The notes under the pieces: model-generated
The model's database searches: none
Told to the model about the DNA's origin: nothing
Seen by the model: the letters and a program-made list of their open reading frames with translations, nothing else
Source: Flavobacteriales bacterium
GTDB lineage: Bacteria > Bacteroidota > Bacteroidia > Flavobacteriales > CAJXXR01
Assembly: GCA_025210805.1 (NCBI GenBank)
Contig: JAOAQX010000023.1
Coordinates: 1 to 64,000 of the forward strand
Direction: 5' to 3'
DNA length: 64,000 bases
Made by a program: the position numbers and the translations under genes
In this document: positions 1 to 61,754 of the stretch, piece after piece
Position numbering within the stretch: the stretch's first letter is position 1
Layout of the letters: every line of letters starts with the position of its first letter

Positions 1-46
1 CCCCTGCGTGACAGGCAGGTATTCTAACCAACTGAACTACCAGACC
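1..46 (-). tRNA. tRNA-Asp (GUC), 5' part, cut by window edge
   Basis: The minus strand reads the 5' acceptor strand GGTCTGG, a D arm and an anticodon arm with GTC in the loop, identical to the complete tRNA-Asp at 95-168. The 3' half lies outside the window. It is the second gene of a tandem tRNA-Asp array read leftwards. Confidence 0.93.
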
Positions 47-94
47 AACTTATGTTGTGTATTAATTAGTAATCTATTCTCTGAATTAAAAAAG

Positions 95-168
95 CGGTCT
101 GGACGGGACTCGAACCCGCGACCCCCTGCGTGACAGGCAGGTATTCTAACCAACTGAACTACCAGACC
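95..168 (-). tRNA. tRNA-Asp (GUC)
   Basis: This is a complete 74-nt cloverleaf on the minus strand. Acceptor GGTCTGG pairs with CCAGACC, with discriminator G. The anticodon arm is CCTGC-CTGTCAC-GCAGG, which gives anticodon GTC (Asp). The T arm contains GGTTCGAGTCCC. The CCA end is not encoded. It is transcribed leftwards together with the copy at 1-46, and decayed copies of the same gene lie just upstream (181-320). Confidence 0.97.
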
Positions 169-266
169 AACTTATTTTTTTATAAGTCTCGGATCAGCGA
201 CCACTCCCGATGATAATCGGGATATTTAACCAACTGAACTACCAGACCAACTTATTTTTTTATAAG
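147..266. repeat. 40-bp direct repeat covering tRNA-Asp 5' end plus leader
   Basis: Positions 147-186 and 227-266 are identical over 40 bp. Each unit holds the first ~22 nt of tRNA-Asp and the 18 nt upstream of it, including a short CTTAT..ATAAG hairpin. The 80-bp period is about one tRNA plus spacer, so the array seems to have grown by tandem duplication, after which one copy decayed. Confidence 0.9.
181..248 (-). pseudogene. tRNA-Asp remnant with replaced anticodon arm
   Basis: The 5' 22 nt (acceptor strand and D arm) match tRNA-Asp exactly. The anticodon arm is replaced by a perfect hairpin, TCCCGAT-TATC-ATCGGGA, that cannot form the normal 5-bp stem with a 7-nt loop. The T arm is recognisable but mutated, and the 3' acceptor strand no longer pairs with the 5' end. 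It cannot be a working tRNA. It lies in the leader of the live tRNA-Asp genes. Confidence 0.8.
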
Positions 267-320
267 CTCAATTCAGTAATTATTTCCAAATTATTTGGAG
301 ATTCTAATCAACTGAGTTGA
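265..320 (-). pseudogene. strongly decayed tRNA-Asp-like remnant
   Basis: Only a D-arm-like stretch (AGTTGATTAGAATC on the minus strand, near 301-316) resembles tRNA-Asp. Where the anticodon arm should be there is again a near-perfect hairpin (TCCAAAT..ATTTGGA, 285-299). Acceptor and T arms are not recognisable. The relation to tRNA-Asp is inferred from the arrangement and is less certain than for 181-248. Confidence 0.45.
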
Positions 321-61570: not shown

Positions 61571-61644
61571 GGTCGCGTAGCTCAGCTGGATAGAGCATCT
61601 GCCTTCTAAGCAGACGGTCATAGGTTCGAATCCTATCGCGATCA
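61571..61644 (+). tRNA. tRNA-Arg (UCU)
   Basis: 74 nt with acceptor GGTCGCG/CGCGATC (one G-U), anticodon arm TCTGC-CTTCTAA-GCAGA giving TCT (Arg AGA/AGG), and T arm AGGTTCGAATCCT. It lies 12 bp after tRNA-Pro. Its 3' 31 nt are repeated exactly at 61723-61753. Confidence 0.96.
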
Positions 61645-61646
61645 CA

Positions 61647-61680: not shown

Positions 61681-61691
61681 GTATAATAAGC

Positions 61692-61754
61692 ATGGGATAG
61701 TGCATTCCGATTTTTAATCGGAACGGTCATAGGTTCGAATCCTATCGCGATCAC
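61692..61754 (+). pseudogene. tRNA-Arg remnant with replaced anticodon arm
   Basis: Positions 61723-61754 match the tRNA-Arg 3' part plus one flanking base (61614-61645) over 32 nt. Before it, GGGATAGTGCAT resembles the D-arm end. The anticodon arm is replaced by TTCCGAT-TTTTA-ATCGGAA, a 7-bp hairpin that could also be read as a 5-bp stem with loop TTTTTAA. The 5' acceptor strand and most of the D arm are absent, so no cloverleaf can form. It lies past the operon terminator. Confidence 0.85.

What the first reader, a model, noticed from the sequence alone, without database searches (positions are those of the whole stretch)
181..320. Two decayed tRNA-Asp copies with hairpins in place of the anticodon arm
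Upstream of the live tRNA-Asp genes, the copy at 181-248 keeps the 5' 22 nt exactly but has TCCCGAT-TATC-ATCGGGA where the anticodon arm should be. A more decayed copy (265-320) has another perfect hairpin (TCCAAAT..ATTTGGA) at the same place. Random decay should destroy pairing, but here it is longer than the original 5 bp. Either a small palindromic element inserts at the anticodon position, or the remnants are kept as leader structures for processing or attenuation.
Basis: partly seen in the sequence, partly recalled or inferred. Interest (0 to 1): 0.6.

Follow-up and report, generated by a model that had tools for sequence, protein, structure and literature searches.

The report
Endonuclease gene scars beside tRNA genes
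The two odd tRNA copies are scars of a little-known family of mobile genes, common in Bacteroidota bacteria, that sit beside transfer-RNA genes, carry a small DNA-cutting enzyme, keep the tRNA working and leave a tRNA fragment whose anticodon arm has been swapped for a standard hairpin.

Summary
Both tRNA-Asp copies exist and carry perfect hairpins, and the same thing recurs: a tRNA-Arg copy at window 61690-61754, a third Asp copy on another contig (C34) and two Asn copies (C10). The hairpins share the stem TYCCGAT..ATCGGRA. Across genomes I found a strict rule. Copies upstream of a live tRNA keep its exact 5' half; copies downstream keep its exact 3' half; both have the anticodon arm replaced by this hairpin. 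Between live tRNA and copy there is often a small GIY-YIG endonuclease gene: 44 of 87 loci, and the one broken small GIY-YIG gene of this genome lies just after the Asp copy on C34. The endonucleases are under purifying selection, cluster by target tRNA, and come and go at one tRNA-Arg locus within one genus. Best reading: scars of free-standing homing-type endonuclease elements that invade tRNA genes and leave a working tRNA behind, related in principle to fungal mitochondrial mORFs and phage SegB. Cleavage, and why the hairpin stem is so conserved, are not shown. I found no description of such elements in the open literature searched. One narrow hairpin pattern occurs in 29 of 392 Bacteroidota genomes (control 0).

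The parts
1..46 (-). Live tRNA-Asp gene (5' part), cut by the contig end
   Evidence: Rfam tRNA, 30.3 bits, truncated
94..168 (-). Live tRNA-Asp (GTC), parent of the orphan copies
181..248 (-). Upstream-type orphan copy A of tRNA-Asp: nt 1-22 exact, anticodon arm replaced, 3' side degenerate
   Evidence: same type as the upstream units
205..222 (-). Hairpin of copy A, TCCCGAT-TATC-ATCGGGA
265..320 (-). Upstream-type orphan copy B, older and more decayed
285..299 (-). Hairpin of copy B, TCCAAATAATTTGGA (two compensatory changes relative to A)
61571..61645 (+). Live tRNA-Arg (TCT), last gene of a Ser-Pro-Arg operon, parent of the next part
61690..61754 (+). Downstream-type orphan copy of tRNA-Arg: 3' half exact, anticodon arm replaced, 5' side lost
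   Evidence: (30.2 bits)
61705..61723 (+). Hairpin of the Arg orphan, TTCCGATTTTTAATCGGAA

Best explanation
The copies are footprints of a family of small mobile elements built around a free-standing GIY-YIG endonuclease gene that colonises tRNA genes. SHOWN: the full element is [live tRNA]-[terminator]-[GIY-YIG ORF, about 80-120 aa]-[orphan = tRNA nt ~19-26, hairpin, nt 44-76] (downstream type), or [orphan = nt 1-26, hairpin, nt 44 to ~56]-[ORF]-[live tRNA] (upstream type). The live tRNA stays whole. ORFs are under purifying selection, and their tree follows tRNA isotype and element type. One tRNA-Arg site is occupied, decayed or empty in different species of one genus. Tandem [ORF-orphan] arrays and ORF-less orphan arrays are common. 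INFERRED: the enzyme cuts the tRNA gene in or near the anticodon arm. Repair from an element-bearing copy puts the element between the two halves of the gene while supplying the missing half, so the tRNA is restored and the displaced half is left behind. The hairpin replaces the cut site in that displaced half. Repetition or unequal recombination builds arrays, and loss of the ORF leaves scars. The window's Asp copies A and B and the Arg copy are such scars. The broken GIY-YIG gene on contig C34, 3' of an Asp orphan, is the only small one left in this genome.
For: Recurrence of the hairpin copies at Asp, Arg and Asn in this genome. Strict geometry: upstream units keep nt 1-26, downstream units keep nt 44-76, always on the parent's strand (130 units on the same strand, 1 on the opposite). 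GIY-YIG ORFs at fixed spacing in 44 of 87 unit loci, Pfam PF01541 E 1e-10 to 1e-18, invariant catalytic Tyr, Tyr-x-Gly, Arg, His and Glu, dN/dS 0.10-0.15 in close pairs. Of 18 regions around small GIY-YIG genes in six genomes, 11 had a predicted tRNA and 12 a tRNA or orphan. Tree clusters by isotype: 15 changes against 29.7 shuffled, 0 of 200; a Lys clade spans four lineages. Element type: 2 changes against 7.6 shuffled. Same tRNA-Arg slot in 30 genomes of one genus: 5 intact arrays, 8 remnants, 17 empty, with flank synteny. The only small GIY-YIG of the own genome is broken and lies beside the Asp orphan on C34; its C-terminal piece matches elements near Val and Arg tRNAs at 1e-20 to 1e-18.
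Against: No cleavage or mobility has been shown. The live tRNA keeps an ordinary anticodon arm with no clear recoding, so how an occupied site escapes recutting is unexplained. The same TCCCGA stem at many isotypes is more than simple displacement of a half gene predicts. Some arrays of near-identical orphans have no ORF in the locus (for example L153). In the window no ORF is left beside the Asp or Arg orphans; the link to C34 rests on a contig end inside tRNA-Asp. L257, first taken as an empty site, holds what looks like a decayed hairpin.
Confidence: 0.72

Rival explanations
1. The swapped hairpin is itself the working part: a site (DNA palindrome TCCCGA-N5-TCGGGA, possibly extruded, or an RNA hairpin) that the GIY-YIG protein or a host factor binds. 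The elements move by a hairpin-directed route, and the tRNA halves give homology.
For: The stem is nearly the same at 11 or more isotypes and in several phyla, with compensatory variants. Small GIY-YIG restriction enzymes recognise short symmetric DNA (PMC2630997). A second class of hairpin, TCCGCC..GGCGGA, goes with Met-type elements at another tRNA position.
Against: One genome carries both TTCCGA and TCCCGA classes and only one small GIY-YIG gene; decayed scars lose the hairpin; no binding data.
Confidence: 0.3
2. Host-maintained tRNA-like RNAs: orphan copies are kept as leader, decoy or processing structures for the tRNA operon.
For: C34, Val and Arg orphans score as weak tRNAs, and some fold better than shuffles (z -2.5 and -3.1).
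Against: Present in a minority of genomes even within a genus; the two types keep opposite halves; abandoned scars lose pairing; complementarity of the two sides is weak on average (mean z -0.47 and -0.32).
Confidence: 0.08
3. Attachment-site remnants of tRNA-targeting islands or phages with tyrosine integrases.
For: Islands are known to duplicate tRNA 3' ends next to an intact tRNA (general knowledge); the downstream copies here also keep an exact tRNA 3' end.
Against: Units of 72-360 bp cannot hold an integrase; the gene found at fixed spacing is GIY-YIG; copies of 5' halves are as common as 3' halves; the anticodon arm is replaced, not preserved; only 2 viral contigs carry the pattern.
Confidence: 0.04
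4. Ordinary decay of duplicated tRNA genes, with chance hairpins or REP-like palindromes.
For: Some Bacteroidota genomes have 58-79 dispersed TCCCGA..TCGGGA palindromes.
Against: 122 of 130 orphans found without asking for a hairpin have one; fixed position; in C. jejuense 7 of 8 palindromes of the class are in tRNA copies.
Confidence: 0.03

Closest known systems
Fungal mitochondrial mobile ORFs that restore the gene they enter (Allomyces atp6, Glomus atp6/atp9/cox2/nad3; PMC3630166)
   Same: Free-standing endonuclease ORF, in some cases GIY-YIG, that carries a copy of the gene end, so that the gene is restored and the native end is displaced downstream
   Different: Protein genes, not tRNA; mitochondria; no conserved hairpin at the displaced end; no upstream type; tandem arrays not described in the passages read
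Phage T4/T6 SegB (GIY-YIG homing endonuclease in tRNA regions; PMC13096335)
   Same: Free-standing GIY-YIG enzyme associated with tRNA genes, cuts inside them, drives tandem amplification of tRNA plus its own gene
   Different: Lytic phage genes, not chromosomal elements of Bacteroidota; no orphan halves with a swapped anticodon arm described; no isotype preference reported
tRNA-targeting integrative islands
   Same: Part of the tRNA gene is duplicated and the live gene kept whole
   Different: Use an integrase and long cargo; keep the anticodon arm; no GIY-YIG
REP palindromes and RAYT transposases
   Same: Short perfect palindromes, some with similar sequence in the same genomes
   Different: Here the palindrome sits at one fixed tRNA position and goes with GIY-YIG, also in a genome with almost no dispersed copies

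Membership tests
Free-standing GIY-YIG homing endonuclease element | GIY-YIG catalytic domain with intact motif | tested here: met
Free-standing GIY-YIG homing endonuclease element | ORF kept by selection for the protein | tested here: met
   dN/dS 0.10-0.15 in close pairs
Free-standing GIY-YIG homing endonuclease element | Presence/absence at one site among close relatives | tested here: met
   17 empty, 13 with element or remnant in one genus
Free-standing GIY-YIG homing endonuclease element | Enzyme tied to one target gene | tested here: met
   tree follows tRNA isotype (15 changes against 29.7); inheritance by tRNA homology could give the same pattern
Free-standing GIY-YIG homing endonuclease element | Occupied site protected from cutting | tested here: inconclusive
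   no clear recoding of live anticodon arms; the orphan arm is replaced
Free-standing GIY-YIG homing endonuclease element | Cleaves the target, biased inheritance | not testable with these tools
   needs enzyme assays and crosses or conjugation
Gene-restoring mORF (Allomyces type) | Host gene whole, displaced fragment beyond the ORF | tested here: met
SegB | Phage-encoded | tested here: not met
   2 hits in 2.9 million viral contigs; only weak PHROG matches
tRNA-targeting integrase island | Integrase within the element | tested here: not met
   72-360 bp units with at most one GIY-YIG ORF
Group I intron in tRNA anticodon loop | Catalytic intron RNA interrupting the gene | tested here: not met
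   only tRNA families reach threshold; the gene is not interrupted
REP/RAYT | Palindrome dispersed through the genome | tested here: inconclusive
   dispersed in 4 of 6 genomes, not in C. jejuense (8 sites) or Pollutibacter (3 sites)

The most novel reading that the evidence does not exclude
A phylum-wide class of mobile elements whose mobility depends on a standard palindromic hairpin (TCCCGA..TCGGGA) written into a decoy tRNA anticodon arm. The hairpin is a recognition site shared by nucleases that each stay with one tRNA isotype: a transposition-like route distinct from known homing.
Probability: 0.3. Interest if true: 0.88.

Novelty: new variant of a known kind. Interest (0 to 1): 0.76.

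Why it matters
If right, tRNA genes of a whole bacterial phylum are invaded by minimal endonuclease elements that have gone unnoticed because each piece looks like a tRNA pseudogene or an anonymous GIY-YIG ORF. It would explain many tRNA fragments and contig breaks at tRNA genes, offer about 85-aa nucleases with possible tRNA-gene specificity, and give a natural system for asking how a selfish gene can enter an essential RNA gene without killing the host. The conserved swapped anticodon stem is a clear, testable puzzle.

Tried and rejected
Rfam and ARAGORN on the window: no known RNA at the copies. Hairpin as a dispersed element of this genome: rejected; 20 CCGAT..ATCGG sites, of which 5 are in tRNA copies and at least one is a terminator. 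Recoded live anticodon arms as immunity: no clear sign. Orphans as long fold-back (attC-like) structures: suggested by the folds of copies A and B, but weak on average. Phage origin: 2 viral contigs. Literature searches for this arrangement in Bacteroidota found nothing; subscription papers and preprints are not covered.

Full report
OBSERVATION. The window is the first 64 kb of contig C23 of a 3.12-Mb, 34-contig genome. Its order includes 0.2-0.6-Mb genomes, which suggests Flavobacteriales (inference). On the minus strand, reading towards the contig end, come copy B (320-265), copy A (248-181), a live tRNA-Asp (168-94) and a second tRNA-Asp cut by the contig end (46-1). Copy A is exact for tRNA nt 1-22 and has TCCCGAT-TATC-ATCGGGA; copy B has TCCAAATAATTTGGA.

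RECURRENCE IN THE SAME GENOME. Contig C34 begins inside a tRNA-Asp 3' half and continues with a third Asp copy (C34:106-178) bearing the same hairpin as A but an intact T arm and 3' acceptor strand. In the window itself, 45 bp after the live tRNA-Arg of a Ser-Pro-Arg operon, lies an Arg copy (61690-61754) with hairpin TTCCGATTTTTAATCGGAA and an exact 3' half. On C10, two Asn copies with TTCCGATTATTCATCGGAA sit between two live tRNA-Asn genes. So one hairpin class appears in three unrelated tRNA contexts.

RECURRENCE ELSEWHERE. In 395 genomes of the order, a hairpin plus T-loop pattern found copies after the same Ser-Pro-Arg operon and upstream of tRNA-Ala. In a sample of 392 Bacteroidota genomes a similar narrow pattern occurs in 29 (24 of 179 genera), and its reversed control in none.

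GEOMETRY. Each unit was compared with the live tRNA of its locus. Units upstream carry the parent's nt 1-26 exactly, then the hairpin, then a short piece of the variable loop and T stem. Units downstream carry about eight nt of the D stem, the hairpin, and nt 44-76 exactly. 130 units lie on the parent's strand and one on the other. The hairpin is an anticodon arm of 17-19 nt whose stem has been replaced by TCCCGA/TCGGGA (or TTCCGA/TCGGAA); its loop contains the parent's anticodon in 31 of 102 distinct units, against 10.7 on shuffling. Without asking for a hairpin, 64 of 71 upstream and 58 of 59 downstream orphans have one; this includes 13 of 13 downstream orphans in loci picked through GIY-YIG genes in six genomes, three of which loci had first been found through the hairpin. 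Met-type elements have another hairpin (TCCGCC..GGCGGA), starting after the anticodon loop, and an Asn type has it in the variable loop.

THE GENE. Between live tRNA and orphan lies a small GIY-YIG ORF in 44 of 87 unit loci; in several downstream-type elements its stop codon is the TAG of the D-stem remnant TAGAGC. Pfam PF01541 matches at E 1e-10 to 1e-18; the catalytic residues are invariant and close pairs have dN/dS 0.10-0.15. The tree follows tRNA isotype (15 changes against 29.7, 0 of 200 shuffles as low) and element type (2 changes against 7.6). In six genomes, 11 of 18 regions around small GIY-YIG genes have a predicted tRNA and one more an Asn-like orphan; a few of these regions had led to the choice of genome. 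In the window's genome the only small GIY-YIG gene is broken and begins about 80 bp after the Asp orphan on C34.

LIFE CYCLE. At the Ser-Pro-Arg slot in 30 genomes of one genus, 5 have intact ORF-hairpin-3'-half arrays, 8 have partial remnants and 17 none by these criteria. Flank synteny brackets inserts of several hundred bp, and some 'empty' sites hold a decayed hairpin, so pairing is lost once an element is dead.

MECHANISM. I favour homing-type mobility: a break in the tRNA gene repaired from an element-bearing copy, with the missing half supplied by the element and the original half displaced. Fungal mitochondrial mORFs restore their target genes in this way (PMC3630166). Phage SegB, a GIY-YIG enzyme, cuts tRNA genes and drives tandem amplification of tRNA plus its own gene (PMC13096335). 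Shown here: anatomy, geometry, selection on the ORF, isotype association, presence/absence. Inferred: cutting, its position, repair route. Unexplained: why the displaced arm always takes the same stem, and how occupied loci escape cutting.

NOVELTY. I found no report of such elements in the open-access library (nine of ten searches used; subscription literature not covered). The principle is known; the tRNA target in bacteria, the two mirror-image types, the swapped-stem orphan and the breadth in Bacteroidota appear new.

Noticed in passing
G000 C3:178260-178456 (L040 860-1060): A string of hybrid, truncated tRNA-like sequences (weak Rfam tRNA hits), perhaps a decayed phage or island tRNA array.
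   Followed up: no
G000 C6:116521-116555 and C6:91712-91732 (L041, L042): tRNA-Leu-like fragments next to or away from a live tRNA-Leu; possible older scars without a clear hairpin.
   Followed up: no
L103, L108, L115, L120, L155, L160: Some orphans carry a second palindrome (for example TCCCCAAAGCTTTGGGGA, TCCGCCGAAGGCGGA) in place of the T loop.
   Followed up: partly
L069-L072 and L242: tRNA-Asn 3' halves with CCCGATAGCTATCGGG in the variable loop; in L242 this repeats together with a GIY-YIG ORF.
   Followed up: partly
G395, G397, G398, G400 genomes: 58-79 dispersed TCCCGA..TCGGGA palindromes per genome against 0-4 in controls, some seemingly inside coding regions; origin unknown.
   Followed up: partly
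L163, L096, L140; window copy B: A few upstream orphans have a 3' side strikingly complementary to their 5' half, forming one long hairpin.
   Followed up: partly
L066, L067: Live tRNA-Ser genes whose long variable arm contains TTCCGATTGTATCGGAA, the same palindrome class.
   Followed up: no
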